Shown: positions 29,494-52,893 of the stretch, in pieces
Layout: every line of letters begins with the position of its first letter
Position numbering within the stretch: position 1 is the first letter of the stretch
DNA from: Mycolicibacterium goodii
GTDB taxonomy: Bacteria > Actinomycetota > Actinomycetes > Mycobacteriales > Mycobacteriaceae
Assembly (NCBI RefSeq): GCF_022370755.2
Contig: NZ_CP092364.2
Location: 1,364,001 to 1,428,000 of the forward strand
Length of the DNA: 64,000 bases
Direction: 5' to 3'
Program-made: the position numbers and the translations under genes
The notes under the pieces: generated by a model
Databases searched by the model: none
The model's input: only the letters and a program-made list of their open reading frames with translations
Told to the model about the DNA's origin: nothing

Positions 29494-29582
29494 CCACGTA
29501 TGCCGCCACCGGCCCTAACCGGGCCATATTTGCGTTCAGGGTGAGCAAAAGTCCTCGCTGGACAGTCTGGGAAAATCGAGTG

Positions 29583-30755
29583 ATGACCACCAGGACCGCG
29601 CCGCTGGGCCAGCCCGATCTGGCCGCAACGCCGGGCCGGCCTTTCGGCATCTACATCCATGTGCCGTTCTGCGCGACACGCTGCGGATACTGCGACTTCA
29701 ACACCTACACGCCCGCCGAACTCGGCGGCGCGAACCCCGAGGGCTGGCTGGCGGCGCTGCGCACCGAACTGCGCCTGGCCGCCGAACACGTGGGTGCGCC
29801 TCTGGTGCGGACCGTATTCGTCGGGGGCGGTACCCCGTCGCTGCTCGGTGGTGCCGGCCTGAGCGCGGTGCTCGAAGCGGTGCGCGACAACTTCGAGCTG
29901 GACGCCGATGCCGAGGTGACGACGGAGGCCAATCCCGAGTCCACGTCGCCCGAGCTGTTCGCGACGCTGCGCGACGCTGGTTACACCCGAATCTCGCTCG
30001 GCATGCAGTCGCTGGCGCCGCACGTGCTCGCGGTGCTCAACCGCACGCATTCTCCTGGGCGGGCGCCTGCCGCGGCGGCCGAGGCGAGGGCCGCGGGCTT
30101 CGAACACGTCAACCTCGACCTCATCTACGGCACGCCGGGGGAGTCCGACGACGATCTGCGCCGCTCGGTCGAGGCGGCCGTGAACGCCGGCGTCGACCAC
30201 GTGTCGGGCTACGCGCTGATCGTCGAGGACGGAACGGCGCTGGCGCGGCGAGTTCGCCGCGGTGAGGTCGCCGCCCCCGACGACGATGTGCTCGCACACC
30301 GCTACGAGCTGCTGGACGGCCAGCTGACGGCCGCGGGTTTCGCCTGGTACGAGGTCTCGAACTGGAGCGCGCCCGGCGGTGAGTGCCGACACAACCTCGG
30401 TTACTGGGACGGCGGGGAATGGTGGGGCGCGGGTCCGGGAGCCCACGGGTTCCTCGACGCGACGCGGTGGTGGAACATCAAGCACCCCAACAACTATGCG
30501 CAGGCCCTCGCCGGCGACGAGTTGCCGATCGCCGATTTCGAGGTGCTCGGCGCTCAGGATCGGCACACCGAGGACGTGATGCTGCGACTGCGGCTGCGGC
30601 GCGGATTGGCGATGGACGACCTCGCGGCCGACGAGCGCGCGCGGGTACCCGGACTCGTCGCGGAGGGACTGCTCGACATCGCGGGCGAGCGCATGGTGCT
30701 CACCGACCGCGGTCGGTTGCTGGCCGACGGCGTGGTGTGCGCGCTGCTGGCCTGA
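29583..30755 (+). CDS. hemW: radical SAM haem chaperone HemW (HemN-like)
   Basis: A 390-residue radical SAM protein. The Fe-S motif is CATRCGYCDF (CxxxCxxC) preceded by YIHVPFC. Typical HemW landmarks follow: VFVGGGTPSLL, TTEANPES, RISLGMQSL, NLDLIYGTPGES, YEVSNWS and GAHGFL. HemW proteins traffic haem and lack the residues needed for coproporphyrinogen oxidation by true HemN. Annotation as coproporphyrinogen III oxidase is common but less likely. ATG 29583 is chosen; GTG 29580 is adjacent and equally placed. Confidence 0.88.
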   Translation: MTTRTAPLGQPDLAATPGRPFGIYIHVPFCATRCGYCDFNTYTPAELGGANPEGWLAALRTELRLAAEHVGAPLVRTVFVGGGTPSLLGGAGLSAVLEAVRDNFELDADAEVTTEANPESTSPELFATLRDAGYTRISLGMQSLAPHVLAVLNRTHSPGRAPAAAAEARAAGFEHVNLDLIYGTPGESDDDLRRSVEAAVNAGVDHVSGYALIVEDGTALARRVRRGEVAAPDDDVLAHRYELLDGQLTAAGFAWYEVSNWSAPGGECRHNLGYWDGGEWWGAGPGAHGFLDATRWWNIKHPNNYAQALAGDELPIADFEVLGAQDRHTEDVMLRLRLRRGLAMDDLAADERARVPGLVAEGLLDIAGERMVLTDRGRLLADGVVCALLA

Positions 30756-30894: not shown

Positions 30895-30913
30895 TTAGGC
30901 AAGGCTATCCACG
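30895..30913 (+). promoter_or_regulatory. IdeR-type iron box upstream of the polyketide synthase
   Basis: TTAGGCAAGGCTATCCACG agrees with the IdeR consensus TTAGGTTAGGCTAACCTAA at 13 of 19 positions, including TTAGG and AGGCTA. It lies 34-52 bp before the PKS start, as expected for iron-repressed siderophore genes. Confidence 0.6.
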
Positions 30914-30947
30914 GTTGGCCCGTCGATCACGCCGAAGACGGAGACCG

Positions 30948-33900
30948 GTGACGGTGAGCACCGAGAACGCGGCGCAACCGGGTCCAGAACCCATCGCAGT
31001 GATCGGCATCGGCTGCCGCGTGGCGGGTGACGTCGGTACGCCATGGGACTTCTGGTCCTACCTGCTCGAGGGACGCAGCGATGTGCGCGAGGTGCCGCAG
31101 GAGCGTTGGGAACCGTATCTGCGCCGCGATCCGCGCAATGCCGCCGTGCTGCGGGAGACGACCCGCTGGGGCACGTTCCTCGATGACCTCGCGGGTTTCG
31201 ACGCCGAGTTCTTCGGCGTGTCGCCCCGCGAAGCGGAGCTGATGGACCCACAACAACGCCTCGCACTCGAGGTGAGCTGGGAGGCGTTGGAGCACGCCGG
31301 AATCGTCCCGAGGGCCCTGGCCGGCAGCGACACCGCGGTGCTGATGGGTGTCAACAGCGACGACTACGGCAAGTTGATCATGGAGGACCTGCCCGGCATC
31401 GAAGCGTGGACCGGGATCGGCACGTCCCTGTGCGGCATCGCCAACCGGGTGTCGCACCTGCTGGACCTACGCGGGCCGAGCGTCGCGCTCGACGCCGCCT
31501 GTGCGGCATCGCTGGTCGCCGTGCATCAGGCGTGCCAGATGCTGCGTGCGGGGGAGACGTCGCTGGCGCTGGCCGGCGGTGTCAGCGCGCTCATCGGACC
31601 GGGCCTGGTGCGGGTGCTCGACGAAGCCGGGGCGACCGCCCCCGACGGCAGGTGCAAGACGTTCGACGAGGACGCCGACGGCTACGGGCGCGGTGAGGGC
31701 GCGGGAGTCGTCGTGCTCAAGCGGCTCGCCGACGCCGAGCGCGACGGGGACCGGGTCCTGGCGGTGGTGCTCGGCGGTGCCGTCGCCCAGGACGGCCGGA
31801 CGGTCGGCATCATGTCGCCCAACGGGGCCGCGCAGGCCGACATGTTCCGGCGAGCCTGCCGGGCCTCTGGGATCGCGCCGGCCAGCGTCGGCTACATCGA
31901 GGCACACGGAACCGGCACCCCGACGGGCGACCCCACCGAGGTAGCGGCGCTGGCCGAGGTGTACGGCGCGGGCCGCACCGGCGACGAGCGATGCCGCATC
32001 GGGTCGGTGAAACCCAACATCGGCCACCTTGAGGGTGGCGCCGGCGTGATGGGACTCATCAAGGCCGTGCTGGCACTGCACCACGAGGTGATCCCGCCGA
32101 CCGCGGGGCTGCGCCGGCTGACCTCCGCGGTCGACTGGGATCGCAGTGGGTTGCGGGTTCCCACCGAGGTCGAACCGTGGGCCCGCACCGACACCCCGCG
32201 ACGCGCGGCGGTGTGCAGCTACGGCTACGGCGGAACCATCGCTCACGTTCTGCTGCAGGAGGCGCCGGACGCCGAGCGCCGGCCACCGCAACTGCCGTCC
32301 GGACCGCTCGTCGTACCGCTGTCGGCCCGTTCGCCGGTGCGGTTGGCCGCCCAGGCCGAGGCGTTGGCCGACCACCTCCGCACCACCGACCAGCCGCTGG
32401 CTCCTCTCGCGGCCACGCTGTGGGGCCGTCGCGACCACGAAAACGTCCGCGCCGCAGTGGTTGCCGAGCACCCACACGAACTGGTCGCCGGCCTCGACGC
32501 GGTGGTGCGCGGGGAATCCGGCGCCACCGTCGTGACCGGGACCGTGCTGCCGACCGCACACCCGGCTGCCGACGGGGTGTGGGTGTTCTCCGGGCACGGT
32601 TCGCATTGGGCGGGAATGGGGCGCGAACTGCTCACGGCCGAACCGACATTCGCCGCGGTCATCGACGAGGTCGACGACGTCTTCGGTCCCGAGCTCGGAT
32701 TCTCCGCCCGTGCCGCGTTGAGTGCGGGCGAACTCGGCGGCACCGACCGCGTGCAGGCGTTGACGTTCGCGATGCAGGTCGGGCTGGCCGCGCTGCTGCG
32801 GGAGCGGGGTGTGCGGCCCGCAGCGGTGATCGGGCATTCGGTCGGTGAGGTCGCGGCGTGTGTGGTCTCTGGGGTGTTCGATCTGCGCCATGGCGCGGCG
32901 GTCGCGTGCCACCGTGCCCGCGGCTTCCGCGGCGTGATGGGGGCCGGTGCCATGGCGCTGGTGCGCCTGCCCTTCGCCGAGGCCGAGCAGCGGCTGTCCG
33001 GCCGCACCGACGTCGTGGCCGCCATCAGTGCATCGCCGGAGTCGGCGGTCATCTCGGGTGTCACCGATGCCGTCGAACAGGTGTGCCGGTCCTTCTCCGA
33101 GCAGGGCATCTCGGTGCGCCGGGTCAACACCGACGTCGCCTTCCACAGTCCGGCGATGGACGCCCTGACAGGTGAGCTCGCCCGTGCGGTCGCAACCCTG
33201 CCGCCGCCCGGTGACGCCCAGATCCCGCTGTACACAACGGCATTGGCGGACCCGCGGTCCACCATGCCGCGCGGGCCGCAATACTGGGCGACCAACCTGC
33301 GCGGTCAGGTGCGTTTCGCCGAGGCCGTGGCTGCCGCGGCACACGACGGTCATCGGCTGTTCCTCGAGGTATCGGCGCACCCGGTGGTGGCCCATTCGAT
33401 CGTCGAGACACTGCTGCACCTCGGTGTCGAGGAACATGCCGTCCTCCCGGTGCTGCGTCGCGAGTGCGCCGAAACCCGCGCGGTGAGTACCGCGGTCGCG
33501 GGACTGTACTGCCACGGCGCCACGGTCGAGCACGGCGTCGGCGCCGGTGACGAGTGGGCGGCCGATGTGCCGGTGACCCAGTGGCGGCACCGCACATTCT
33601 GGCGTGTGCCCACGCCGCCCCCCGGCGGTCGGGCCGTGCACGACACCGACAGCCACACGCTGCTGGGCGGACCGATCGACGTGGCCGGGACGGTGTCCAC
33701 GCGGATGTGGCAGACCAGGCTGGACCTCGACTCGCGGCCCTACCCCGGCGACCATCCGGTCAAGGGCACCGAGATCGTCCCCGCCGCAGTGCTTCTCAAC
33801 ACCTTCCTGACCGCAGCTGGCGGCAGCCGGTCCGCCGGGGAGTGCACCGGCGCCGGGCTTGCCGACGTCCGCTTGCGGACCCCGGTGGCCCCAGGCCGTG

Positions 33901-36170
33901 CGCGGGATCTCCAGGTGGTGCTGCAGGACCGGCAGCTGACCCTGGCCTCCCGTCTGGTGGCCGGGGGCGACGACCGGGACGGCGGCTGGCTGACCCACAG
34001 CAGCGCCGTCGTGGCGAAGCCCGACATCGCCGACGATCTCGACGAACTGAGCGGTCAGGGACTGGACCTCGTGGCGGCCCGAGACCGGTGCACCGAGGTA
34101 CTGCCGCCGTCCCACGTCATCGACACCTTGGCGACGCTGGGGGTCGCCGCCATGGGATTCGATTGGGACATCAAGGATCTGCGTCGTGGTGACGACGAGC
34201 TGTTCGCGGTGGTCGCGGCGGCCGCCGACGGATCGACCCCGACGTCGTGGGCGGCGCTGATGGATGCGGCGACGTCGGCGGCCTCGACGATCTTCGGCGC
34301 GCCGGCACGGCTCCGGATGCCGTCGCGCATCGAACGGGTGCGGGTGCACGGCGCGCCGCCTGCCGTCGCGATGTTGTCGGTTCGCCGCCGCCCCGCGACC
34401 ACGACCACAGATGTGGTGATCGCCGACGGGGCGGGGTCGGTCCTGGTCTCGATCAAGGGCATGACGTTCGAGGAGCTGGAGAATTCCGGCCGCGACTGGC
34501 TGCCCGCCGACGCGCGCCGCATCGTGCACCAGATCGCCTGGAAGCCGGTTCATCCGCGCGGCGAAGCCCGCCCGACCGGTGTTGTCCTGGTCGGCGGCGA
34601 CGTCGACGGACTCAACCGCACGGTCGGCGAATTGGCTGCGGCGAACGTGCCGTACGTCGCCGTCGAGGATCCGGCCGAGCTGCCTGCCGTGACCGGTTCG
34701 CTGCGGGCCGATCTCGGCGATCGCGTCGCGATCCTGGTCCTTCCGCGCGGCGACGATTCCCCGGAAGCCGCTGTCGACCTGGTGATGCGGACGCTGACCT
34801 GGCAGCACGAGGCAGACCCGGGCGGACGACTGTGGGTGCTCACCGTCGGTGTGCACGAGGGCGACAATCTGAACCATGCGCCGCTGTGGGGGCTGTCGCG
34901 GGTTGCGGCCGCCGAGCATCCCCAGTTGTGGGGCGGCGTCGTCGACGTCGTCGACGGACGGCTGCCGCTGGACGTGCTCGGCTCGCTGCACGGTCACGGC
35001 GTGGTCGTGGTCCGTGACGGTGCGGCCCTCGTGGCACGCCTGGCCAGAGCCGGAGCCGCGGAAGCAGCGGAGCCGCAGGCGCTCGAATGTTCGCCCGCCG
35101 GTACGTATCTGATCACCGGGGGCACGGGTGTGCTGGGTCTGTTGATGGCTCGGCGCCTGGCCGATCTCGGTGCCCGCCGCCTGGTGTTGTTGTCGCGGTC
35201 GGGACTGCCGGACCGGTCCTCGTGGGACGACTCGGCCGCCGCACCGGCGGTGCGTGCGGTGGCGGCGCTCGAGGAGCGGGGCGTTTCGGTCACCGTCGCG
35301 GCCGTCGATCTCGGGGCACCCGGTTCGGCCGACGCCCTGCGCGCGGTCCTCAGCGACCTACCCCCGGTGCGTGGCGTGATCCATGCGGCGGGTGTGGAAG
35401 CCGGTGCGCTGCTGATGAACACGACGGCCGAGGAATTCGCGACGGCGATGCACCCGAAGGTCGCGGGCACGCTGGTCCTGCACGAGGTCTTTGGGCCCGA
35501 GCAGTTGGACTGGATGGTGTTGTTCTCCTCCTGCGGCTACCTCGCCGGTTTCCCGGGCCAGGGTGCGTACGCCTGTGCCAACTCGTTCCTCGACGTGCTG
35601 GCCCGGCACCGGCGTGCGCTCGGCGACCGCACCACCGCGGTTGCCTGGACGGCTTGGCGGGGTCTTGGCATGGGATCGGCGTCGGAGTTCGTCGCGGCGC
35701 AACTGGATGCGCTGGGCATGGGCACCGTCGGGGCCGATGACGCGATGCGCGCACTCGATTTCGCGATGCGCACCGATGACGCCAATCTCGTTGTGCTGCC
35801 GGTACTCCCGGCGGCTGCCTCGGTGCCGATCCTGAGCGACATCGCGCCAGAGTGGGGACCCGACGGTGACGACCAGGACGCGGCGGCGTCGCTGTCGGCC
35901 GGTGAGCTCGACGCCGGGAGCGTCGAGGATCAGGTGATCGCCGCGGTCGCACAGCAGCTGGGGTTGCCGCCCGGCGACGTGGACGCGAGTCTGCCGCTGG
36001 TGGAGCTCGGGGTCGACTCGATCATGACGGTCCGGCTGCGCAGGCAATTGGAGAAGCAGACCGGCTTGTCGTTGCCCCCCACCCTGTTGTGGGAACACCC
36101 GACCGCCGCTGCGGTCGCGGCCAAGATCGTCGAGATGCTGTCGGTGCCGGTGGAGGCGGAGGTTTCCTGA
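30948..36170 (+). CDS. iterative type I polyketide synthase, probable 6-methylsalicylic acid synthase
   Basis: A 1740-residue single-module PKS. KS covers ~12-430, with active Cys185 in DAACAAS, HGTGTPTGDP and NIGHLEG. AT covers ~545-870, with GHSVG at Ser~631 and VAFHSP indicating malonyl-CoA. The DH/thioester-hydrolase-like domain follows from ~905, with HPVKGTEIVP at His936. KR has GGTGVLG near 1388 and Tyr~1541 in QGAYACANS. The ACP has Ser1691 in GVDSIMTV. There is no TE or ER. Domain order, length, the GTEIVPAA motif and the DSIMTVRLRRQLE...LPPTLLWEHPT ACP resemble 6-MSA synthases (ChlB1, fungal MSAS). The iron box and mbtA neighbour suggest it makes the aryl starter of mycobactin. GTG 30954 is an alternative start. 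Confidence 0.8.
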   Translation: MTVSTENAAQPGPEPIAVIGIGCRVAGDVGTPWDFWSYLLEGRSDVREVPQERWEPYLRRDPRNAAVLRETTRWGTFLDDLAGFDAEFFGVSPREAELMDPQQRLALEVSWEALEHAGIVPRALAGSDTAVLMGVNSDDYGKLIMEDLPGIEAWTGIGTSLCGIANRVSHLLDLRGPSVALDAACAASLVAVHQACQMLRAGETSLALAGGVSALIGPGLVRVLDEAGATAPDGRCKTFDEDADGYGRGEGAGVVVLKRLADAERDGDRVLAVVLGGAVAQDGRTVGIMSPNGAAQADMFRRACRASGIAPASVGYIEAHGTGTPTGDPTEVAALAEVYGAGRTGDERCRIGSVKPNIGHLEGGAGVMGLIKAVLALHHEVIPPTAGLRRLTSAVDWDRSGLRVPTEVEPWARTDTPRRAAVCSYGYGGTIAHVLLQEAPDAERRPPQLPSGPLVVPLSARSPVRLAAQAEALADHLRTTDQPLAPLAATLWGRRDHENVRAAVVAEHPHELVAGLDAVVRGESGATVVTGTVLPTAHPAADGVWVFSGHGSHWAGMGRELLTAEPTFAAVIDEVDDVFGPELGFSARAALSAGELGGTDRVQALTFAMQVGLAALLRERGVRPAAVIGHSVGEVAACVVSGVFDLRHGAAVACHRARGFRGVMGAGAMALVRLPFAEAEQRLSGRTDVVAAISASPESAVISGVTDAVEQVCRSFSEQGISVRRVNTDVAFHSPAMDALTGELARAVATLPPPGDAQIPLYTTALADPRSTMPRGPQYWATNLRGQVRFAEAVAAAAHDGHRLFLEVSAHPVVAHSIVETLLHLGVEEHAVLPVLRRECAETRAVSTAVAGLYCHGATVEHGVGAGDEWAADVPVTQWRHRTFWRVPTPPPGGRAVHDTDSHTLLGGPIDVAGTVSTRMWQTRLDLDSRPYPGDHPVKGTEIVPAAVLLNTFLTAAGGSRSAGECTGAGLADVRLRTPVAPGRARDLQVVLQDRQLTLASRLVAGGDDRDGGWLTHSSAVVAKPDIADDLDELSGQGLDLVAARDRCTEVLPPSHVIDTLATLGVAAMGFDWDIKDLRRGDDELFAVVAAAADGSTPTSWAALMDAATSAASTIFGAPARLRMPSRIERVRVHGAPPAVAMLSVRRRPATTTTDVVIADGAGSVLVSIKGMTFEELENSGRDWLPADARRIVHQIAWKPVHPRGEARPTGVVLVGGDVDGLNRTVGELAAANVPYVAVEDPAELPAVTGSLRADLGDRVAILVLPRGDDSPEAAVDLVMRTLTWQHEADPGGRLWVLTVGVHEGDNLNHAPLWGLSRVAAAEHPQLWGGVVDVVDGRLPLDVLGSLHGHGVVVVRDGAALVARLARAGAAEAAEPQALECSPAGTYLITGGTGVLGLLMARRLADLGARRLVLLSRSGLPDRSSWDDSAAAPAVRAVAALEERGVSVTVAAVDLGAPGSADALRAVLSDLPPVRGVIHAAGVEAGALLMNTTAEEFATAMHPKVAGTLVLHEVFGPEQLDWMVLFSSCGYLAGFPGQGAYACANSFLDVLARHRRALGDRTTAVAWTAWRGLGMGSASEFVAAQLDALGMGTVGADDAMRALDFAMRTDDANLVVLPVLPAAASVPILSDIAPEWGPDGDDQDAAASLSAGELDAGSVEDQVIAAVAQQLGLPPGDVDASLPLVELGVDSIMTVRLRRQLEKQTGLSLPPTLLWEHPTAAAVAAKIVEMLSVPVEAEVS

Positions 36171-36198: not shown

Positions 36199-37848
36199 TC
36201 AGCCGGTGATGGCGGCGACGAGCTTCTTCTTGTCGACCTTGCCCACCGCGGTCAGCGGCAGCGACGGTAACGGCACCAGCACATCCGGTCTGGCGTGGGC
36301 GGAGGCGCCGCGCTCGTCGAGGAATTCGTTGAGTTCCGCCAGGTCGATCGGTGCTCCCCGGAAAACAACTGCGGCGCAGATCTTTTCACCCAGGTACTCG
36401 TCGGGCAGGGCGACCGCGGCGGCAGCGTAGATGCCGGGATGGGTCAGCAGATGGTCTTCGAGGTCGGTGGCCGAGACGGTCTCGCCACCGCGGTGGATGA
36501 CGTCTTTGATCCGCCCCGTCACCTCGACGTACCCCGCCCGTTCGCCGTCGGGAAAAATCCGCACGCAGTCCCCGGTCCGGTAGAAGCCGTCCGGGCTGAA
36601 CGACCGTGCGTTGGCTTCCTCGGCGCGGTAGTAGCCGTTGAGCGTGTAGGGTCCGCGGACCAGCAGCTCGCCTTCCTCACCAGGGGGCACGTCGTTGCCG
36701 TCCGCGTCGACCACGCGCATCTCGTCGTGCGGGGACATCGGCCGTCCCTGGGTGTTGAGCACCACGTCCACCGGATCGCCCGGACGGGTGAAGTTCAGCA
36801 TGCCCTCGGCCATCCCGAAGATCTGCTGCAGCCCGTGTGTCAGGCCGTCGTAGATGAACCGCGCCTCCTCGGGGGACATCCGCGAACCCCCGACCTGGAC
36901 GAGCCGCAACGTGGTCGGCAACACCGGTTCCCATTCGCAGGCCTGGGTCCACAGCTTGGCCAGCGCGTTGACCAGGCCCGTCACCGTGACGCGGTGGGTG
37001 TTGATCAGCGGGAACACCGCTTCGGGGCTGGGATTGTCGGTGTAGACCGTCGTCGCGCCCACCGTCATCGATCCCAGCAGCCCCGGGCAGGCCAGGGGAA
37101 AGTTGTGGCCGGCCGGGAGAACCGCCAGATACACGTCGTCGTGCACGAGTTCGCAGGCCTGAGCGCACGCGACGGCGTTGTAGACGTAGTCGTCGTGGGT
37201 CCGCGGGATGAGCTTGGGCAGTCCGGTCGTGCCGCCGGACACCAGCAGTACCGCGGGCAGGCGCGTGTCGACGGTGACATCGGGAGGTCCGGGCCGATCG
37301 AAGTCGTGCAGTGCGGACCAGGAATCGAAGTCGCCGGGTTCGCCGGCCACCAGGATGTGGCGGAGGGCGGGATGGGTGTCGACGAGTTGGCCGGCCAACT
37401 CGCGGTAATCGAAGCCCGCGGCGATGTCGGGTATCACCATCCCGACCGCGCCGCTGACCTCGGCGAAGTGTCCCAGTTCGGCTGACCGGTGGCCCGGCAG
37501 ACACAACACCGGCACCACACCGGCACGCAGCAGCCCGAAGACCGCTACGGCGAACTCGCGTGAGTTCGGCAACTGCAGCAGCATCCGGTCGCCGGGCTCG
37601 ATGCCTCGGGCGGCCAGCGCCGCGCCGATCCGGTCGGCAAGCGCGTCGAGTTCGCTGAAGGTATGGCTGCCGGTGGCGTCGACCACAGCAGGCTTGTCGG
37701 GCCATTTCGCGGCAGCATCACGCAGGATGGTGTCCAGTGTCCGGCCCCGCCAGTATCCGGCGTTCTCGTACACCTTGGCGCGATCCTGCGGGAATGGCAC
37801 GAATCCTTGTGCGAGATCGTGCAGTTCGCGCTGTGTGCCGGTGGTCAC
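36199..37848 (-). CDS. mbtA: aryl acid-AMP ligase MbtA (salicylate/methylsalicylate activating)
   Basis: A 549-residue stand-alone adenylation enzyme. It has A3 motif LVSGGTTGLPKLIPRTH, aryl-binding segment AGHNFPLACPG, A5 FGMAEGMLN, A7 YRTGD, A8 GRIKDVIHRGGETVSATDLE, and A10 with the catalytic lysine near the end (AVGKVDKKK). It forms the aryl-adenylate and loads the ArCP at the start of MbtB. The start is GTG 37848; upstream codons carry no similarity, and AGAGGGG lies ~12 nt before it. Divergent from mbtB across two iron boxes. With the 6-MSA synthase beside it and no mbtI here, its substrate may be 6-methylsalicylate, which the sequence alone cannot confirm. Confidence 0.92.
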   Translation of the reverse strand: MTTGTQRELHDLAQGFVPFPQDRAKVYENAGYWRGRTLDTILRDAAAKWPDKPAVVDATGSHTFSELDALADRIGAALAARGIEPGDRMLLQLPNSREFAVAVFGLLRAGVVPVLCLPGHRSAELGHFAEVSGAVGMVIPDIAAGFDYRELAGQLVDTHPALRHILVAGEPGDFDSWSALHDFDRPGPPDVTVDTRLPAVLLVSGGTTGLPKLIPRTHDDYVYNAVACAQACELVHDDVYLAVLPAGHNFPLACPGLLGSMTVGATTVYTDNPSPEAVFPLINTHRVTVTGLVNALAKLWTQACEWEPVLPTTLRLVQVGGSRMSPEEARFIYDGLTHGLQQIFGMAEGMLNFTRPGDPVDVVLNTQGRPMSPHDEMRVVDADGNDVPPGEEGELLVRGPYTLNGYYRAEEANARSFSPDGFYRTGDCVRIFPDGERAGYVEVTGRIKDVIHRGGETVSATDLEDHLLTHPGIYAAAAVALPDEYLGEKICAAVVFRGAPIDLAELNEFLDERGASAHARPDVLVPLPSLPLTAVGKVDKKKLVAAITG

Positions 37849-37887
37849 GGTGATCGGGATCCCCTCTGGGTGCGTGTGTGGGCGAAT

Positions 37888-37906
37888 CGAATATAGGCTA
37901 ACCTCC
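37888..37906 (-). promoter_or_regulatory. IdeR-type iron box, mbtA side
   Basis: The core TAGGCTAACCT on the plus strand (AGGTTAGCCTA on the minus) matches the centre of the IdeR consensus; 12 of 19 positions agree. It lies 40-58 bp before the mbtA start. Confidence 0.55.
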
Positions 37907-37912
37907 TCGAAG

Positions 37913-37931
37913 TTAGGGCAGCCTGTACTAA
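37913..37931 (+). promoter_or_regulatory. IdeR-type iron box, mbtB side
   Basis: TTAGGGCAGCCTGTACTAA: 13 of 19 match with both outer half-sites (TTAGG, CTAA) intact. It is nearly identical to the box at 41534-41552, so the two mbt promoters share a duplicated operator. Confidence 0.65.
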
Positions 37932-37946
37932 TTATTTCGGGAGGGC

Positions 37947-40900
37947 ATGGTGAGTAGCGGGGCGACGAGTCCGAAGACCGTTCACGACGAGGTGGCCGCA
38001 CTCCTGGGACTGAGCCCCGATGCTCTGGATCCGGAAGCCGATCTGATCGCCTCCGGTCTCGACTCGATCCGGATGATGTCGCTGTCCGGCCGGTGGCGCA
38101 GGCAAGGTATCGACGTCGGGTTCGCCGAACTGGCGGCCGCTCCCACCGTGAATGCCTGGCGGCAACTGGTCGCCCAACGCGCCGCGCGTTCTGGAGGTGC
38201 CAAGGGTCCAGAGCCGCAGACCGCAGAGGGCGCCGACTCGTCAGAGGCCTTCCCGTTGGCCCCGATCCAGCATGCGATGTGGATCGGCCGCCAGAGTGAA
38301 CAGCAGCTCGGCGGTGTCGCGGCCCATCTGTACGTCGAATTCGACGGGGCCGGAGTCGATCCCGACCGGCTGAGGATCGCCGCCGACAAGCTCGCCGAGC
38401 GTCACCCCATGCTGCGGGTGGAGATCCTCGGTGACGGCACCCAGCGGATCGGCGACCGTCGGCTTCCGCTGCACATCTACGATCTGCGCGACCTGGAACC
38501 CGCCGCCGCCGAGGAGCGGCTCGAGGCGATCCGCGACGAGAAGTCCCATCAGCTCCTCGAAGTCGACATGCTGGAGCTGAGCCTGTCGCTCCTGCCGGAC
38601 GGCCGGACCCGGTTGCACGTCGACATGGACATGCAGGCTGCCGATGCGGTGAGCTACCGCAACTTCATGGCCGATCTCGCCGCGTTCTACCGGGGTGCGG
38701 AGTTGCCGCCGCTCGGTTACACCTACCGCGAGTACCGCGCCGCGCTCACCGCCTCCACGCCGCCACCGTCACCGGAAGACGTGCAGTGGTGGGCCGAGCG
38801 GATACCCGAGCTGCCTGATCCGCCCGCGCTGCCGCTCATCCCGCAATCCGAGCAGCGAAATCCGTTGCGCAGCATCAGGTTGTGGCACATCCTCGACGTT
38901 TCCACGCGCGATGCGCTGTTCGCGGCGGCGCACCGGCGTGGGATCACCCCCGCGATGGCAGTGGCTTCGACATACGCCAATGCGCTCGCCAAATGGTCGT
39001 CGAGTTCGAGGTTCCTGCTGAACCTGCCGATGTTCGGCCGTGAGCCGTTCCATCCCGACGTCGAGAAACTGGTCGGCGACTTCACCTCCTCGCTGCTGCT
39101 CGACATCGACCTGGCCGGCGCCGACACCCCGATCGCGCGGGCACGCGTGCTGCAGGAGACGCTGCACGCCACGGCCAGGCGCTCCGCGGTGTCGGGGCTC
39201 GACGTGCTGCGCGACATGAGCCGGCACCGCGGCGCGCAGATGCTGGCCACCATCGTCTACACCAGCGCGCTGGGTCTGGGCGACCTGTTCGCCGGCGACG
39301 TCACCGATCAGTTCGGCGAGCCGGTCTGGACCATCTCGCAGGGGCCGCAGGTGCTCATCGACGCTCAGGCCACGCCGCTGGCCAAGGGGTTGATGATCAA
39401 CTGGGACGTGCGTGTCGAGGCCTTCCCGGCCGGGCTTCCCGAGGCGATGTTCGACTACCAACTTGCCGAGTTGCGGCGTCTGGCCAGTGATGACAATGCC
39501 TGGGACGCGGTCGATCCGCCCGCCGTCTCGGCAGCGTCGCAGGCCGTGCGGGCGGCCGCCAACGCCACCGCCGCGGAGCCGAGCGGGGACAGCCTCGTCG
39601 ACGGCTTCTTCCGCAACGCCGAGCAGGCTCCTGATCGGGTCGCGGTCATCGGCTCCACGGGCGAACTCACCTATGGTGAGCTGAAAGACAAGGTCCTCGC
39701 GGTCGCGGCGGCACTGCAATCCCGCGGCGTACATCGCGGGGACGTCGTGGCGGTGATGGGACCCAAGAACCCCGAGCAGATCCCGGCACTGCTCGGCATT
39801 CTGACCGCCGGCGCGGCCTACCTGCCGATCGGTATCGACCAACCCGATGAGCGGGCCCGGCAGATTCTCGATACCGGTGGCGTCGAGTTCGCACTGGTGA
39901 CCGGCACCGAGCATCCCGCGATTCTCCAGGCGGTCGGGGTTCCTGCCCTCACCGTCGGCGAGGCCGAGATCGTCGGGGACCCGGCCGAATTCGAACCCCC
40001 GGGCTTCGATGTCGCCGATCTGGCTTATGTGCTGTTCACCTCGGGATCGACCGGTGAACCCAAGGGCGTGGAGCTCACCCACGACGCGGTGATGAACACC
40101 CTGGAGTTCCTGTACCGGCATTTCGGCATCGGTCCGGATGACCGGGCTCTGGCGTTGTCACATCTCGAATCCGACATGTCGGTTCCCGATGTGTTCGGCA
40201 CGTTGCGGGCAGGCGGCGCGATCGTGGTGGTCGACGAGGAGCACCGGCGCGACCCCGACACCTGGGCGCGGCTCATCGACGCGCACCGGGTCACGGTCGT
40301 GAACTTCCTGCCCGGTTGGCTGGAGATGTTGCGTGAGGTCGGCGGATCGCTGTCGTCGCTGCGCGTGGTGCTCGCCGGCGGCGACTGGGTCCGTCCCGAT
40401 CTGGTCCGTGCGCTGCGCAAGCGGGCACCGCACTGCCGGTTCGCCGGGCTGGGTGGAGCCACCGAGACCGCGATCCACGGCACGATCTACGAAGTCGGGG
40501 AGGACCTCGATGAGTCGTGTCCGCTCACGTGGCCTTCGGTGCCCTACGGTGTGCCGTTCCCCAACAACCTGTGCCGCGTGGTCAACGAGCGGGGCGAGGA
40601 CTGCCCCGACTGGGTCCCGGGCGAGCTGTGGTTCGCCGGCCGCGGCATCGCACGTGGCTACCGCGGCAGGAACGACCTGACGGCACAGAAATTCGTCGAA
40701 TACGACGGCCGGAGGTGGTACCGCTCCGGGGATCTCGCCAGGTACTGGCCCGACGGCACGTTGGAGTTCATCGGCCGCACCGACCACCGGGTGAAGCTCA
40801 GCGGCTACCGCATCGAGCTCGGCGAGGTCGAGGCCGCGCTGCGGCGCGTTCCCGGCGTCGAGGGCGCGGTGGCCGCCGTGGTCGCGGTCGAAGGCGGCCG

Positions 40901-41450
40901 TGACGTCCTCGGGGCCCTGATCCGCCTCGGCGATTCGGACCTCGACACCGAAACGGTCGCCGACCGCTTGCGCGCCCTGGTGCCCGCGCACATGGTCCCG
41001 CGGCTGCTGGTCACCACCGACCGGATTCCGTACACGCTCGGCAAGGTCGACCGTCGCGCGGTGGCGCGCCGGTTGAGCGAGGCCGGCCTGTCGGTGGACC
41101 GCGGTCATCGTGAGCCGTCGACCGCATTGGAAACCGCGCTCGTGCGGATCGTGGCCGAGGTCCTCGGCCGAAGCGACGTGGGAGTGGACGACGACTTCTT
41201 CTCCGTGGGTGGTGACTCGGTACTGGCCACGCAGGTCATCGCACGGGTGCGCGACTGGCTGGACACCCACACCGCCGCAGTCGCCGACATCTTCGCCACG
41301 CGGACGGTTGCGGGCCTGGCGGGCGTGCTGATGGGCCGCGAATCCGACGATTCCCGACTGGAGCAGGTGTGTGAGCTCTATCTGGAAGTTGCCGGAATGG
41401 ACAACGCCGAGATCGCCGCCGAACTCCAGCGCACGGCCTCGACCCCTTGA
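37947..41450 (+). CDS. mbtB: mycobactin NRPS MbtB: ArCP-Cy-A-PCP
   Basis: A 1167-residue synthetase. The aryl carrier domain is residues ~8-75, with GLDSI at Ser40. The heterocyclisation domain (~90-510) opens with FPLAPIQHAMWIGR, and the DxxxxD motif DMQAAD lies near 228 in place of HHxxxDG. The adenylation domain (~545-1010) has FTSGSTGEPKGVE, for Ser or Thr. The PCP has GGDSVLAT at Ser1091. It couples the aryl acid to Ser/Thr and closes the oxazoline. It ends ~75 residues after the PCP Ser with no thioesterase; M. tuberculosis MbtB is longer and carries one, whereas here mbtT is separate. ATG 37947 or GTG 37950 (better SD spacing). Confidence 0.93.
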   Translation: MVSSGATSPKTVHDEVAALLGLSPDALDPEADLIASGLDSIRMMSLSGRWRRQGIDVGFAELAAAPTVNAWRQLVAQRAARSGGAKGPEPQTAEGADSSEAFPLAPIQHAMWIGRQSEQQLGGVAAHLYVEFDGAGVDPDRLRIAADKLAERHPMLRVEILGDGTQRIGDRRLPLHIYDLRDLEPAAAEERLEAIRDEKSHQLLEVDMLELSLSLLPDGRTRLHVDMDMQAADAVSYRNFMADLAAFYRGAELPPLGYTYREYRAALTASTPPPSPEDVQWWAERIPELPDPPALPLIPQSEQRNPLRSIRLWHILDVSTRDALFAAAHRRGITPAMAVASTYANALAKWSSSSRFLLNLPMFGREPFHPDVEKLVGDFTSSLLLDIDLAGADTPIARARVLQETLHATARRSAVSGLDVLRDMSRHRGAQMLATIVYTSALGLGDLFAGDVTDQFGEPVWTISQGPQVLIDAQATPLAKGLMINWDVRVEAFPAGLPEAMFDYQLAELRRLASDDNAWDAVDPPAVSAASQAVRAAANATAAEPSGDSLVDGFFRNAEQAPDRVAVIGSTGELTYGELKDKVLAVAAALQSRGVHRGDVVAVMGPKNPEQIPALLGILTAGAAYLPIGIDQPDERARQILDTGGVEFALVTGTEHPAILQAVGVPALTVGEAEIVGDPAEFEPPGFDVADLAYVLFTSGSTGEPKGVELTHDAVMNTLEFLYRHFGIGPDDRALALSHLESDMSVPDVFGTLRAGGAIVVVDEEHRRDPDTWARLIDAHRVTVVNFLPGWLEMLREVGGSLSSLRVVLAGGDWVRPDLVRALRKRAPHCRFAGLGGATETAIHGTIYEVGEDLDESCPLTWPSVPYGVPFPNNLCRVVNERGEDCPDWVPGELWFAGRGIARGYRGRNDLTAQKFVEYDGRRWYRSGDLARYWPDGTLEFIGRTDHRVKLSGYRIELGEVEAALRRVPGVEGAVAAVVAVEGGRDVLGALIRLGDSDLDTETVADRLRALVPAHMVPRLLVTTDRIPYTLGKVDRRAVARRLSEAGLSVDRGHREPSTALETALVRIVAEVLGRSDVGVDDDFFSVGGDSVLATQVIARVRDWLDTHTAAVADIFATRTVAGLAGVLMGRESDDSRLEQVCELYLEVAGMDNAEIAAELQRTASTP

Positions 41451-41552: not shown

Positions 41553-41568
41553 TGGATCGGAGGTCGTG

Positions 41569-42369
41569 GTGAACGGCATCGCACGTACGACTACGCCGAA
41601 CGCTCAGGAGATGGTCGTCGAGCTCCCCGGCACGCCCGCGGATGCCGCGGCACCCGGCTGCGGGTTGCATGACGCGTTCTACGCGCGCGCCGCGGAGGAC
41701 CCACACCGTGCGGCGCTGACCTGGTCTACCGGTCAGGCGAGTTACCGGGAACTGCGGACGAACTCACTCGCCGTCGCGGGCGCGCTCGCCGTCGCGGGCG
41801 TGCGTCCAGGCGACGGTGTCGCTGTCGTCGGGCCCGCGGGGCCCGACACGGTCACGGCCTTCCTCGGCATCCTGTCCGCCGGTGCCGTGTATGTCCCGGT
41901 TGTCGCCGAGTCGGCCGAAGACATCGAACGGCTCCTGCAGCGGGCCGGTGCGCGGATGGCGCTGTTCGCATCCGGCGCGCAGCCGAGTTGGCTGCCGTCC
42001 CTCACGGTGGCAGAGGCGCTGGGGATCGGCGCCCGCTCGCGTGTCACCGAACCCGTTCCGTGCGATCCGGGTGCACCGGCCTATCGCGTCGTCGGGTCTG
42101 GCGGCCGGCACACCGAGGTGTCCCATGCCCGCGCGACCCAGGCGGTCGACGAGCTCATCCGGAGTCTCGGCGCCCGGGCCGGAGGTGCCGTCCACATCGG
42201 GGAGGCCACAGAACCCGGCCGATCGGTGCTCGCCATGGCCGCGGCGCTGACCGTGGGCGCCGCGATCGTCAGCGCCGAGGTCCCTCCGTACCGGGATCGC
42301 TGCGTGGTGAGGAGCTTTCCGTACGCCATCCCGGTGACGTCCGCCTTCGACGCCGCGACCGCATCGTGA
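41569..42369 (+). CDS. degenerate, truncated adenylation-domain-like protein
   Basis: 266 residues resembling only the N-terminal part of an AMP-forming adenylation domain: HDAFYARAAEDPHRAALTWSTGQASYRELR, GVRPGDGVAVVGPAGPDTVTAFLGILSAGAVYVPV. The phosphate-binding A3 loop expected around residue 165 is reduced to VVGSGGRHTEVSHA, without the Thr/Ser-Gly-Lys residues. The acceptor half (A5-A10) is missing, so it cannot adenylate. The frame is intact over 800 bp, is the first gene of an iron-regulated operon, and overlaps mbtT (GTGA). It may therefore be kept as a structural or scaffold protein, or be a recent relic. Start GTG 41569 has GGAGG 5 nt upstream. Confidence 0.7.
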   Translation: MNGIARTTTPNAQEMVVELPGTPADAAAPGCGLHDAFYARAAEDPHRAALTWSTGQASYRELRTNSLAVAGALAVAGVRPGDGVAVVGPAGPDTVTAFLGILSAGAVYVPVVAESAEDIERLLQRAGARMALFASGAQPSWLPSLTVAEALGIGARSRVTEPVPCDPGAPAYRVVGSGGRHTEVSHARATQAVDELIRSLGARAGGAVHIGEATEPGRSVLAMAAALTVGAAIVSAEVPPYRDRCVVRSFPYAIPVTSAFDAATAS

Positions 42370-43109
42370 CCGATACCGACGTCGCGTTGGAATCCTGGAT
42401 CAAGCGCCACCCGGCACCAGCCGGTTCCGGCAAGCCGACGCTGCTCTTCCCGCACGCCGGCGGCGCGGCGCTGGCCTACCGGTCGTTGGGCCTCGCGCTG
42501 GCCGAGTCCGGCTCCGACGCCTACGTGATGCAGTACCCGCGCCGTGGGGACCGGCTCTCGCACCCCGCACCGGCCACGGTCGGCGACCTCGCCCGTGACC
42601 TCTTCGAGGCCGGGGACTGGTCGCGGCTGGGACCGCTGCGCCTGTTCGGCCACTGCATGGGTGCCGTCGTGGCGTTCGAGTTCGCCCGCACCGCCGAGCG
42701 CAACGGCGTCGAGGTGGAGGCACTGTGGGTGTCGGCGAGTGAGGCGCCGTCCGCGGTCGCCGCGTCTCCTGCGCTGCCGATGGGCTCCTCCGAGATCATC
42801 GCCGAGATGGTCGACCTCGGCGGCACCGACCCACAGCTGCTCGACGACGACGACTTCGTCGAGCTGCTGCTCACGGCGGTGCGCGCCGACTACGAGGCAT
42901 TCAACCGCTACACGTGTGACACCGCCGTGACGATCGCGGCCGACATCTACGCGCTCGGCGGCGAACAGGACCACCGCATCAGCGAGGACATGCTGCGCGG
43001 CTGGGAGATCCACACCGACGGGGCGTTCACCCTCTCGATGTTCGACGGCGGGCATTTCTACATCAACGACTACACCGAGGATGTCGCGGAGCTGGTCAAT
43101 GACCTCTAG
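42366..43109 (+). CDS. mbtT: thioesterase MbtT, type II TE fold with Cys nucleophile
   Basis: A 247-residue alpha/beta-hydrolase of the NRPS type II thioesterase kind (LLFPHAGGAALAYRSL, YPRRGDRL, DGGHFYI). The nucleophile elbow reads GHCMG, so residue 97 is Cys (TGC at 42654-42656) instead of the usual Ser. Asp202 and His230 complete the triad. It probably releases stalled or wrong acyl groups from the Mbt carrier domains, or serves in trans as the TE that M. tuberculosis has fused in MbtB. It overlaps mbtC by 11 bp. Confidence 0.85.
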   Translation: MTDTDVALESWIKRHPAPAGSGKPTLLFPHAGGAALAYRSLGLALAESGSDAYVMQYPRRGDRLSHPAPATVGDLARDLFEAGDWSRLGPLRLFGHCMGAVVAFEFARTAERNGVEVEALWVSASEAPSAVAASPALPMGSSEIIAEMVDLGGTDPQLLDDDDFVELLLTAVRADYEAFNRYTCDTAVTIAADIYALGGEQDHRISEDMLRGWEIHTDGAFTLSMFDGGHFYINDYTEDVAELVNDL

Positions 43110-44424
43110 CGGGGACACGCCGGCGGCAGCCGACCCGGTCGTCATCGTCGGGATGGCGTTGGAGGCCCCTGGCGGGGTCGCCGGTGCCGACGACTACTGG
43201 GCCCTGCTCACCGAGGAACGCGAGGCGCTCGGCCGATTCCCGCGTGACCGCGGGTGGGACGTCGGCGCCCTGCTCGACGGGTCCCGGCGCGACGGCTTCA
43301 AACCCATCCACGATATCGGTGGGTTCCTCACCGGCGCAGGGCAATTCGATCCGGCGTTCTTCGGCATATCGCCGCGCGAGGCCGTCGCGATGGATCCCCA
43401 GCAGCGCGTCGCGCTGCGCGTGGCGTGGCGTGCGCTGGAGAACAGCGGTATCAATCCCGACGAGCTCGCCGGGCACGACGCCGGCTGCTACATCGGTGCC
43501 TCGGGCCTGGAGTACGGGCCCGCACTGTCCGAGTTCTCCCACCACAGCGGCCATCTCATCACCGGAACCTCGCTCGGTGTGATCTCGGGCCGCATCGCCT
43601 ACACGCTCGATCTGGCCGGGCCCGCGCTCACCATCGACACGTCCTGCTCGTCGGCGCTCACCGCACTGCACACCGCGGTCGGCGCGGTGCGTGCCGGGGA
43701 CTGCGACCTGGCGTTGACCGGCGCGGTGTGCGTGATGGGCACGCCGGGTTACTTCGTCGAGTTCTCCAAACAGCACGCGCTGTCCGACGACGGCCACTGC
43801 CGCCCCTACAGCGCGCACGCGAGCGGCACCGTATGGGCCGAGGGTGCGGCGATGTTCGTCCTGCAACGGAAGTCGGCCGCGCTGCGAGACGGCCGCCGCA
43901 TCCTGGCCGAGGTCCGGGCGACCGCGCTGAACCAGGACGGCCGAACCACCGGACTGACCGCGCCGAGCGGCACGGCGCAGCAACGCCTGTTCCACAAGGC
44001 CATCGACCAGGCCGGCGTGCGCCCCGAGGACGTCGGGATGATCGAGGGCCACGGCACCGGCACCCGACTCGGTGACCGCACCGAACTGCGCTCGCTGGCC
44101 CAGACGTACGGTGCCACCGCGTCCGGTGCCGGCGCTCTCCTCGGTTCGGTGAAATCCAACGTGGGCCACGCGCAGGCCGCCGCGGGCGGGCTGGGGCTGG
44201 CCAAAGTGCTGCTCGCCGGGCAACACGCCGCGATCCCGGCCACGCTGCACATCGACCAGCCGAGCCACGAGATCGACTGGGAAGCACAAGGATTGCGTCT
44301 GGCCACGAAGCTCACGCCGTGGCCTGCGGTCAACGGCGAGCGCATCGCTGCGGTGTCGGCATTCGGTATGAGCGGCACCAACGCCCACGCGATCGTCGCT
44401 ATCCCGGACCGGGAGGCGGCGTGA
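43099..44424 (+). CDS. mbtC: beta-ketoacyl synthase MbtC
   Basis: A 441-residue stand-alone type I PKS ketosynthase with Cys183 in DTSCSSAL, HGTGTRLGD and NVGHAQAAAG. It lacks the AT, KR and ACP, which are supplied by MbtD next door. Together they are thought to form the beta-hydroxybutyrate unit between the two lysines of mycobactin. The ATG lies inside the mbtT coding end, and the stop overlaps mbtD (GTGA). Confidence 0.92.
   Translation: MTSSGDTPAAADPVVIVGMALEAPGGVAGADDYWALLTEEREALGRFPRDRGWDVGALLDGSRRDGFKPIHDIGGFLTGAGQFDPAFFGISPREAVAMDPQQRVALRVAWRALENSGINPDELAGHDAGCYIGASGLEYGPALSEFSHHSGHLITGTSLGVISGRIAYTLDLAGPALTIDTSCSSALTALHTAVGAVRAGDCDLALTGAVCVMGTPGYFVEFSKQHALSDDGHCRPYSAHASGTVWAEGAAMFVLQRKSAALRDGRRILAEVRATALNQDGRTTGLTAPSGTAQQRLFHKAIDQAGVRPEDVGMIEGHGTGTRLGDRTELRSLAQTYGATASGAGALLGSVKSNVGHAQAAAGGLGLAKVLLAGQHAAIPATLHIDQPSHEIDWEAQGLRLATKLTPWPAVNGERIAAVSAFGMSGTNAHAIVAIPDREAA

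Positions 44425-47415: not shown

Positions 47416-47423
<8 letters not shown>
44421..47423 (+). CDS. mbtD: polyketide synthase MbtD: AT-KR-ACP
   Basis: A 1000-residue partial PKS module. The acyltransferase (~95-400) has FPGQGSQWPSMG and GHSLGE (Ser195). A long linker follows. The ketoreductase (~660-860) has ITGGTGAVGLQFARRL, SSVSGLWGGLGHAAYAAAN. The ACP has GVDSLLAV at Ser953. The usual AT specificity stretch (HAFH/YASH) reads PAHTT, so extender choice cannot be predicted. There is no KS, as MbtC provides it. GTG 44421 with GGGAGG upstream overlaps the mbtC stop. mbtE starts within its last codons. Confidence 0.92.

Positions 47424-52889
<5,466 letters not shown>

Positions 52890-52893
<4 letters not shown>

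What the first reader, a model, noticed from the sequence alone, without database searches (positions are those of the whole stretch)
30895..36170. A 6-methylsalicylic acid synthase-like PKS in the mycobactin locus, where mbtI would be expected
The ~1740-aa KS-AT-DH-KR-ACP protein has the size, domain order, malonyl-type AT (VAFHSP), GTEIVPAA motif in the DH/thioester-hydrolase domain, lack of TE, and ACP wording of 6-MSA synthases. It is next to mbtA and behind an IdeR-like iron box, and no mbtI is in the window. Old chemical work reports 6-methylsalicylate in some rapid growers and 6-methylsalicyl caps in certain mycobactins (for example mycobactin P). This locus could be the genetic basis: a PKS route to the aryl cap instead of a chorismate route.
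Basis: partly seen in the sequence, partly recalled or inferred. Interest (0 to 1): 0.93.

Follow-up and report, generated by a model that had tools for sequence, protein, structure and literature searches.

The report
Polyketide-made cap for mycobacterial siderophore
Many mycobacteria appear to make the aromatic cap of their iron-scavenging molecule with a polyketide synthase (probably as 6-methylsalicylate) instead of the textbook salicylate enzyme, which would give a gene to chemistry reported decades ago.

Summary
Observation confirmed; interpretation strongly supported by comparative genomics; product unproven. Window 30915/30948-36170 encodes an intact KS-AT-DH-KR-ACP synthase in the mycobactin locus, behind an IdeR-like box and convergent with mbtA. 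No salicylate synthase passes the cut-off in the genome. The KS groups with bacterial iterative aromatic PKSs; the DH's best solved match is the AviM cyclase domain.

Of 297 genomes of the genus, 98 carry this PKS: 84 lack mbtI, 14 have both; 144 have mbtI only; 55 have neither, and none of those 55 has a mycobactin-type MbtA. All 98 have MbtA; 92 of the 93 with both on one contig have them within 10 kb. As a separate unit the PKS has its own box (49 of 51), after mbtA none (0 of 14). MbtA position 303 is Pro in 46 of 46 mbtI-only and Asn in 61 of 61 PKS-linked rows.

Best reading: a 6-methylsalicylate synthase supplies the mycobactin cap, a new variant of a known pathway; cahuitamycin C is the nearest precedent. 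Nine searches of an open-access library showed no paper making the link. The product and MbtA's preference await biochemistry.

The parts
30895..30913 (+). IdeR-like iron box upstream of the PKS (TTAGGCAAGGCTATCCACG)
   Evidence: 13 of 19 to the recalled consensus; a site of 13 or more upstream in 49 of 51 loci with the PKS as a separate unit, 0 of 14 where the PKS follows mbtA, shuffles 1.6%
30948..36170 (+). Iterative type I PKS, KS-AT-DH-KR-ACP, predicted 6-methylsalicylate synthase (ORF opens at TTG 30915; GTG 30948 is the likelier start)
   Evidence: Pfam domains; catalytic residues kept in 64 of 64 mycobacterial rows; KS tree; DH matches 7vwk, the AviM PT domain
36199..38001 (-). mbtA, aryl-acid AMP ligase of the PKS-linked type (N303, I352, M359 and G300 in 5KEI numbering)
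   Evidence: phmmer to 5kei, E 7.8e-240 (that 5kei is M. smegmatis MbtA is recalled); NCBIfam DHB_AMP_lig 550 bits, under its cut-off of 724; type by alignment
37913..37931 (+). IdeR-like iron box in the mbtA/mbtB divergent junction (TTAGGGCAGCCTGTACTAA)
   Evidence: 14 of 19; a site of 13 or more at this junction in 61 of 61 loci, shuffles 2%
37947..41450 (+). mbtB, NRPS with condensation, adenylation and two carrier-domain stretches
   Evidence: Pfam: Condensation, AMP-binding, 2 PP-binding stretches
41988..43109 (+). ORF with a thioesterase domain (mbtT-like); domain at residues 152-372, so the real start is probably near 42367
   Evidence: Pfam PF00975, E 9.7e-46
43081..44424 (+). mbtC, stand-alone ketosynthase
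   Evidence: Pfam
44319..47423 (+). mbtD
   Evidence: NF037940 PKS_MbtD 1383 bits over cut-off 1150
47416..57305 (+). mbtE and mbtF NRPS genes (47416-52893 and 52890-57305)
   Evidence: Pfam condensation, AMP-binding and carrier domains; names by place and domains only
57215..58633 (+). mbtG-like lysine N-hydroxylase
   Evidence: Pfam PF13434, E 7.2e-12
29541..30755 (+). hemN-related gene (HemW), the left flank; in the mbtI-bearing loci where it was found, mbtI lies beyond it
   Evidence: TIGR00539 264 bits over cut-off 205; gene order in related loci

Best explanation
The gene encodes an iterative type I 6-methylsalicylic acid synthase dedicated to mycobactin. Under iron limitation IdeR releases the box at 30895; the synthase condenses one acetyl and three malonyl units, reduces one keto group (KR), and dehydrates and cyclises the chain in the DH/product-template-like domain. 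The aromatic acid leaves the ACP without a thioesterase domain. MbtA adenylates it and loads it on MbtB, giving a 6-methylsalicyl-capped mycobactin in place of the salicyl cap made by MbtI. Shown here by sequence: domain set, catalytic residues, KS affiliation, absence of mbtI, linkage, iron-box sites, genus-wide complementarity with mbtI, and a matching MbtA type. Inferred: IdeR control, the exact product, its release as free acid, MbtA's preference, and the methyl group on the siderophore.
For: Domain order and no TE. 64 of 64 rows (two genomes occur twice) keep KS C/H/H, AT S and H, DH H and D, KR S/Y/N and ACP S. PKS dN/dS is 0.11-0.20 in 10 close pairs (mbtA 0.07-0.21). KS groups with iterative aromatic PKSs, 99/94; 4 of 4 relatives tested (L036, L038, L041, L050) have a KASIII-like gene beside them, and L038 and L041 halogenases. 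DH best PDB match is 7vwk, 138 bits against 24 for the next; 7vwk is the AviM PT domain, and its catalytic H949 and D1104 align with H936 and D1106. KR present, unlike the relatives L041 and L050, where Pfam shows none. Own genome: no mbtI over cut-off. 297 genomes: both 14, mbtI only 144, PKS only 84, neither 55. In the 55, the best MbtA-like hit is E 1.1e-93 at 38% and every other genome's best is 7.8e-60 or weaker, against E 1e-154 or better in 98 of 98 PKS carriers and 2.2e-202 or better in 30 of 30 mbtI-only genomes tested. PKS and mbtA lie on one contig in 93 of 98, within 10 kb in 92; in 24 the PKS is downstream of mbtA on the same strand, -30 to 175 bp apart in the 14 fetched. Iron-box sites: 49 of 51, 0 of 14, 61 of 61. 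MbtA residues 303, 352 and 359 sort by cap source. Precedents: a 6-MSAS proposed to feed CahJ for cahuitamycin C (PMC4757757 passages); ChlB1 as a fusion in C. glutamicum gives 6MSA in culture (PMC12125101 passages).
Against: No product was measured. 5wm2 (recalled to be CahJ), proposed to take 6-MSA, has the salicylate-type residues A, P, V, L, so the MbtA changes are not required for 6-MSA. V352I makes the side chain larger, not smaller, and 9 of 61 PKS-linked MbtAs keep A300. The MbtA changes separate two clades, so they may be hitchhiking. 14 genomes have both routes; three (G031, G109, G163) keep an mbtI with an iron-box site away from the mbt locus, so salicylate may still be used there. 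PMC9573744 says ChlB1 does not release 6MSA itself, at odds with PMC12125101.
Confidence: 0.87

Rival explanations
1. The PKS is a cap synthase, but the product is another aryl acid, such as orsellinate, a methylated naphthoate or a further modified salicylate.
For: Bacterial orsellinate and naphthoate synthases belong to the same iterative family (naphthoate recalled; AviM orsellinate in PMC9135731). The nearest KS relative in the tree, L049, is of unknown product.
Against: The KR residues are intact in 64 of 64 rows, which argues against orsellinate. MbtA stays close to salicylate ligases: Cys263 in 107 of 107 rows, Phe259 in 106, Leu360 in 104, which argues against a bulky bicyclic acid. 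6-methylsalicyl mycobactins were reported chemically (recalled, papers not held).
Confidence: 0.08
2. The PKS passes the aryl group directly from its ACP to the MbtB carrier domain, and MbtA only salvages free salicylate or 6-MSA.
For: No TE domain; in chlorothricin biosynthesis 6MSA stays ACP-bound and is moved by the KASIII-like ChlB3 (PMC9573744 passages).
Against: In the window the PKS fills the interval between hemN and mbtA, so no KASIII-like gene is next to it, unlike 4 of 4 tested relatives; other mycobacterial loci were not searched for one. MbtA is found in 98 of 98 PKS carriers and in 24 the PKS lies downstream of mbtA on the same strand. CahJ adenylation is the proposed precedent.
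Confidence: 0.08
3. The PKS makes an unrelated iron-regulated polyketide and only happens to sit in the mbt locus.
For: Mycobacteria have many type I PKSs: 272 of 297 genomes have some match to the DH-linker region.
Against: Complementarity with mbtI, absence of MbtA where neither is present, linkage in 92 of 93, two gene arrangements that both keep an iron-box site, KS affiliation.
Confidence: 0.03
4. Salicylate is made by some unrecognised enzyme and the PKS is dispensable.
For: An isochorismate synthase is encoded.
Against: No isochorismate pyruvate lyase match in the own genome (a weak search); the 84 PKS-only genomes would all need such an enzyme.
Confidence: 0.02

Closest known systems
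Mycobactin pathway of M. tuberculosis and M. smegmatis (MbtI-MbtA-MbtB..., recalled)
   Same: mbtA/mbtB divergent pair, mbtC to mbtG, iron-box sites, hemN and nirA flank
   Different: No MbtI; a 1740-aa PKS stands in or near its place; MbtA of a distinct clade; a thioesterase is a separate gene
Bacterial 6-methylsalicylate synthases such as ChlB1 (chlorothricin)
   Same: KS-AT-DH-KR-ACP, about 5.3 kb, no TE, iterative aromatic clade (relatives L036, L038)
   Different: In the window no KASIII-like gene beside it; the neighbour is an aryl-AMP ligase and the locus is a siderophore locus. Direct sequence comparison with ChlB1 was not possible
Cahuitamycin C route of Streptomyces gandocaensis (PMC4757757, passages)
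   Same: A 6-MSAS is proposed to supply an aryl cap to a salicylate-AMP ligase (CahJ) and an oxazoline-forming NRPS
   Different: There the 6-MSAS is unlinked and works beside a salicylate synthase; here it is in the locus, with an iron-box site, and mbtI is missing in 84 of 98 PKS genomes
AviM orsellinate synthase (avilamycin), PT domain 7vwk
   Same: Closest solved domain to the DH; His-Asp dyad aligned
   Different: AviM is KS-AT-PT-ACP without KR and makes orsellinate (PMC9135731, passages)

Membership tests
Bacterial iterative type I 6-MSA synthase | KS-AT-DH-KR-ACP in one protein, no TE | tested here: met
Bacterial iterative type I 6-MSA synthase | Catalytic residues of all five domains intact | tested here: met
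   64 of 64 rows
Bacterial iterative type I 6-MSA synthase | KS in the iterative aromatic clade | tested here: met
   10 mycobacterial KSs with six relatives against 11 others, 99/94; no characterised 6-MSAS was in the set
Bacterial iterative type I 6-MSA synthase | Direct phylogeny against ChlB1, PokM1, NcsB and fungal 6-MSAS | not tested
Bacterial iterative type I 6-MSA synthase | Makes 6-methylsalicylic acid | not testable with these tools
   needs enzyme assay
Orsellinate synthase (AviM type) | KS-AT-PT-ACP without KR | tested here: not met
   KR with S/Y/N and nucleotide motif present
Mycobactin biosynthetic locus | mbtA, mbtB, mbtC, mbtD, mbtE, mbtF, mbtG together | tested here: met
   MbtD over its curated cut-off, the others by domains and similarity
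Mycobactin biosynthetic locus | Salicylate synthase mbtI | tested here: not met
   none over cut-off in the whole genome
Mycobactin biosynthetic locus | IdeR iron boxes | tested here: met
   sites at 30895, 37913, 41492 and 41534 by recalled consensus; conserved upstream of PKS and mbtB in relatives; IdeR binding not tested

The most novel reading that the evidence does not exclude
The cap source and its matching MbtA behave as an exchangeable cassette: mycobacteria have repeatedly swapped between a salicylate type (mbtI with MbtA-P303) and a 6-methylsalicylate type (PKS with MbtA-N303) by horizontal replacement of the mycobactin locus, perhaps to change which siderophore they can make or keep private. 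Evidence: one clean split in the MbtA tree but interspersed labels in the tree of the flanking nirA (8 changes; PKS carriers as one clade rejected by the AU test; 8 of 8 independent pairs agree), and three genomes with an mbtI and a strong iron-box site at the nirA-hemN place while PKS, mbtA and mbtB lie elsewhere.
Probability: 0.45. Interest if true: 0.85.

Novelty: new variant of a known kind. Interest (0 to 1): 0.82.

Why it matters
6-methylsalicylate and methylsalicyl-capped mycobactins were described chemically around 1970 (recalled; those papers are not in the held library), and the literature I could search gave no gene for them. This locus gives a candidate gene and a rule that predicts from the genome which mycobacteria cap with salicylate, with 6-methylsalicylate or with both. 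It also shows that MbtI, usually treated as the first step of the pathway and as a drug target (recalled), is missing from 139 of 297 genomes of the genus by the count, 84 of which carry the PKS. The two natural MbtA types offer material for studying aryl-acid recognition.

Tried and rejected
Rejected readings. (1) Orsellinate synthase: KR residues intact in 64 of 64 rows. (2) MbtI hidden elsewhere: the three weak hits are TrpE, PabB and isochorismate synthase; no pyruvate lyase match (weak, since that family was over its cut-off in 0 of 14 control genomes). (3) 'The PKS simply replaces mbtI': too simple, 14 genomes have both. (4) A frameshift in the gene after mbtB: I first suspected one because two frames overlap at 41566-43109; L004 has the same two-gene layout, so I dropped it; the notes still carry the old idea. 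(5) mbtA-upstream box counts (27 of 47 and 6 of 14) are unreliable because ORF starts were over-extended; one search scanned the mbtB side instead and found 61 of 61. (6) The AU test set 4 PKS rows on the wrong side (53 against 19); one search repeats it correctly (57 against 15, log-likelihood 593 lower, p-AU 6e-145, two trees, quick method); the nirA tree has no bootstrap.

Led nowhere: search for the full iron-box consensus with up to 3 mismatches (0 hits); the plasmid search gave no synthase of known product in the rows listed; no structure prediction was obtained. Nine paper searches on this question showed no title or opened passage joining a PKS or 6-MSA to mycobactin genes; I did not open most listed papers (e.g. 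15), one search listed 20 of 154, and only open-access papers are held.

Caveats on counts. mbtI presence used best E under 1e-100 (158 genomes); the tool's tally over the curated cut-off is 159, so one genome is classed differently, possibly G180. Fisher p 3.5e-22 counts genomes, not independent events. Two genomes occur twice among the fetched PKS loci, also in the MbtA rows. The 46 mbtI-only MbtAs are 16 from fetched regions plus 30 genomes I picked out of the 144. Searches used the loci fetched, not all 98 PKS genomes. One search left out PKS stretches of 1550 aa or less; one search dropped 4 of 72 rows without MbtA.
Full report
What is there. The ORF at 30915-36170 (+) encodes KS, AT, DH, KR and ACP domains and no thioesterase. 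It follows a hemN-related gene (HemW family) and converges on mbtA (36199-38001, -); mbtA diverges from mbtB (37947-41450, +); mbtC, mbtD (1383 bits against a cut-off of 1150), mbtE, mbtF and an mbtG-like gene follow. The window lies in a 6.74-Mb single-contig genome, 99.99% complete.

No salicylate synthase. The best match to that family in the whole genome scores 179 bits, under the cut-off of 325. The three weak hits are TrpE, PabB and an isochorismate synthase. No isochorismate pyruvate lyase match was found, but that family was over its cut-off in 0 of 14 control genomes, so this is weak evidence.

What kind of PKS. The KS falls with six PKSs of other actinomycetes (99/94) and apart from MbtC, MAS, Pks13, CurL and modular KSs (Pks13, MAS and others have long branches). 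Four of the six (L036 Actinomadura, L038 Streptomyces, L041 Verrucosispora, L050 Nonomuraea) were tested by Pfam and each has a KASIII-like gene next to the PKS; L038 and L041 have halogenases, a layout like that described for chlorothricin (passages of PMC9573744). L041 and L050 show no KR. L042 was not tested. L049 (Pseudonocardia plasmid) has no annotated KASIII but an adenylate-forming enzyme and an acyl-CoA reductase, so my label for it is a misnomer. The DH matches 7vwk at 138 bits, the next structure at 24. 7vwk is the AviM product-template domain; its catalytic H949 and D1104 (passages of PMC9135731) fall on H936 and D1106 by my reading of the printed alignment. In 64 of 64 mycobacterial rows every catalytic residue checked is kept, and dN/dS in ten close pairs is 0.11-0.20. 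With one KR and a DH, 6-methylsalicylate is the expected product by established knowledge of this family; this is inference.

Genus-wide test. In 297 genomes of the genus the PKS DH-linker region gives 98 orthologues (52% identity or more for the best stretch; the next listed hits are at most 38%). Cross-tabulated with mbtI: both 14, mbtI only 144, PKS only 84, neither 55; among 275 genomes of good quality 14, 141, 82, 38. In the 55 'neither' genomes the best MbtA-like hit is E 1.1e-93 at 38% (G143), and every other genome's best is 7.8e-60 or weaker. All 98 PKS genomes have MbtA at 67% identity or more, one (G076) truncated and with its PKS hit split over two frames. All 30 mbtI-only genomes that I tested, of 144, have MbtA at 58-65%. 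So no genome of the sample has a mycobactin-type MbtA without one of the two cap sources.

Linkage and regulation. In 93 of 98 genomes PKS and mbtA are on one contig, 92 of these within 10 kb, the last at 14 kb; 69 have the window's convergent layout and 24 have the PKS downstream of mbtA on the same strand, -30 to 175 bp from it in the 14 fetched. A site of 13 or more of 19 to the recalled IdeR consensus stands upstream of the PKS in 49 of 51 loci of the first layout (4 of the 51 have mbtA off the stretch) and in 0 of 14 of the second, while the mbtA/mbtB junction has one in 61 of 61 (shuffles 1.6-2%). mbtI has one in 29 of 35 (no shuffle control). Iron control thus seems kept in either arrangement; protein binding is not shown.

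MbtA types. MbtA splits into an mbtI-only clade (16 rows, 100/100) and the 61 PKS-linked rows. In 5KEI numbering position 303 is P in 46 of 46 against N in 61 of 61; 352 is V in 46 of 46 against I in 60 of 61; 359 is L in 46 of 46 against M in 60 of 61; 300 is A in 46 of 46 against G in 52 of 61. By the printed alignment 352 corresponds to DhbE V329 and 300 to DhbE A277; that these are specificity-code positions is recalled. Against a simple reading: 5wm2 (recalled to be CahJ) has the salicylate-type letters though CahJ is proposed to use 6-MSA (PMC4757757, passages), and the change separates two clades, which allows a single event.

History. In the tree of the flanking gene nirA, PKS and mbtI genomes are interspersed: 8 changes among 72 rows, and holding the 57 PKS rows as one clade is rejected (log-likelihood 593 lower). 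In 8 of 8 independent pairs the MbtA type goes with the cap source, sign p 0.0078. Because PKS and mbtA are physically linked these are transfers or losses of a unit, not eight independent mutations, and nirA is a single neighbouring gene in a quick tree, not a species tree. Three genomes (G031, G109, G163) keep an mbtI with a strong iron-box site (16 of 19) at the nirA-hemN place while PKS, mbtA and mbtB lie elsewhere. Nine of the 37 mycobacterial loci carry mbtI and the PKS together; they include M. septicum, M. peregrinum, M. porcinum, M. senegalense and M. houstonense, which I recall as members of the M. fortuitum complex. I also recall that mycobactin F of M. fortuitum was reported as a mixture of unmethylated and methylated caps, which would fit; no paper was seen for it.

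Outside the genus. In 298 genomes of the order, 24 have a match at E 1e-55 or better: 18 in the genus, and 6 outside it at 37-45% identity. In 394 of the class, 15 at 1e-50: 13 in the genus and 2 outside, at 44-45%. I did not read the neighbourhoods of these eight, so whether any is siderophore-linked is open.

Known or new. 6-MSA synthases and mycobactins are both known; a 6-MSAS feeding an MbtA-like ligase is proposed for cahuitamycin C from an unlinked gene. Nine full-text searches of the held library showed no paper tying a PKS to the mycobactin cap in the titles and abstracts listed and the passages opened. The 1970-era chemistry is recalled; one look-up of a DOI from that time failed. 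Release remains open: PMC12125101 reports 6MSA accumulation from a ChlB1 fusion in C. glutamicum (passages), PMC9573744 says ChlB1 does not release it.

Verdict. It is a new variant of the mycobactin pathway, ordinary in its parts, new in their combination as far as these searches show, and widespread: 98 of 297 genomes of the genus.

Noticed in passing
window 41566-42369 and 41988-43109: Between mbtB and mbtC lies an ORF with only the first part of an AMP-binding domain, followed by a thioesterase ORF overlapping it in another frame, behind two IdeR-like sites (41492, 41534). L004 has the same layout; the use of the truncated adenylation-like protein is unknown.
   Followed up: partly
L143, L144, L145 (genomes G031, G109, G163): mbtI with a strong iron-box site (16 of 19) stands at the nirA-hemN place while the PKS, mbtA and mbtB lie elsewhere in the genome.
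   Followed up: partly
L146 (genome G076): PKS hit split over two frames and MbtA reduced to about 296 matched residues, in a genome that has mbtI: a PKS-type locus that looks broken.
   Followed up: no
55 genomes of the genus (list): Neither mbtI, PKS nor a mycobactin-type MbtA: 38 of 275 good-quality genomes in this sample seem to lack the mycobactin start genes.
   Followed up: partly
L049, 9735-20164: Pseudonocardia plasmid pLS2-1 carries the nearest KS relative in the tree, with an adenylate-forming enzyme, a cupin protein and an acyl-CoA reductase: perhaps a pathway through a free aryl acid.
   Followed up: no
L038, 8555-18442: Streptomyces caeruleatus has a KASIII-like gene, a KS-AT-DH-KR-ACP PKS and a halogenase with flavin reductase, a layout like that of a chlorinated 6-methylsalicyl antibiotic.
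   Followed up: no
L147, G143:C29:48169-49782: A 38% MbtA relative in a genome without mbtI or the PKS; possibly an aryl-AMP ligase of another siderophore.
   Followed up: no
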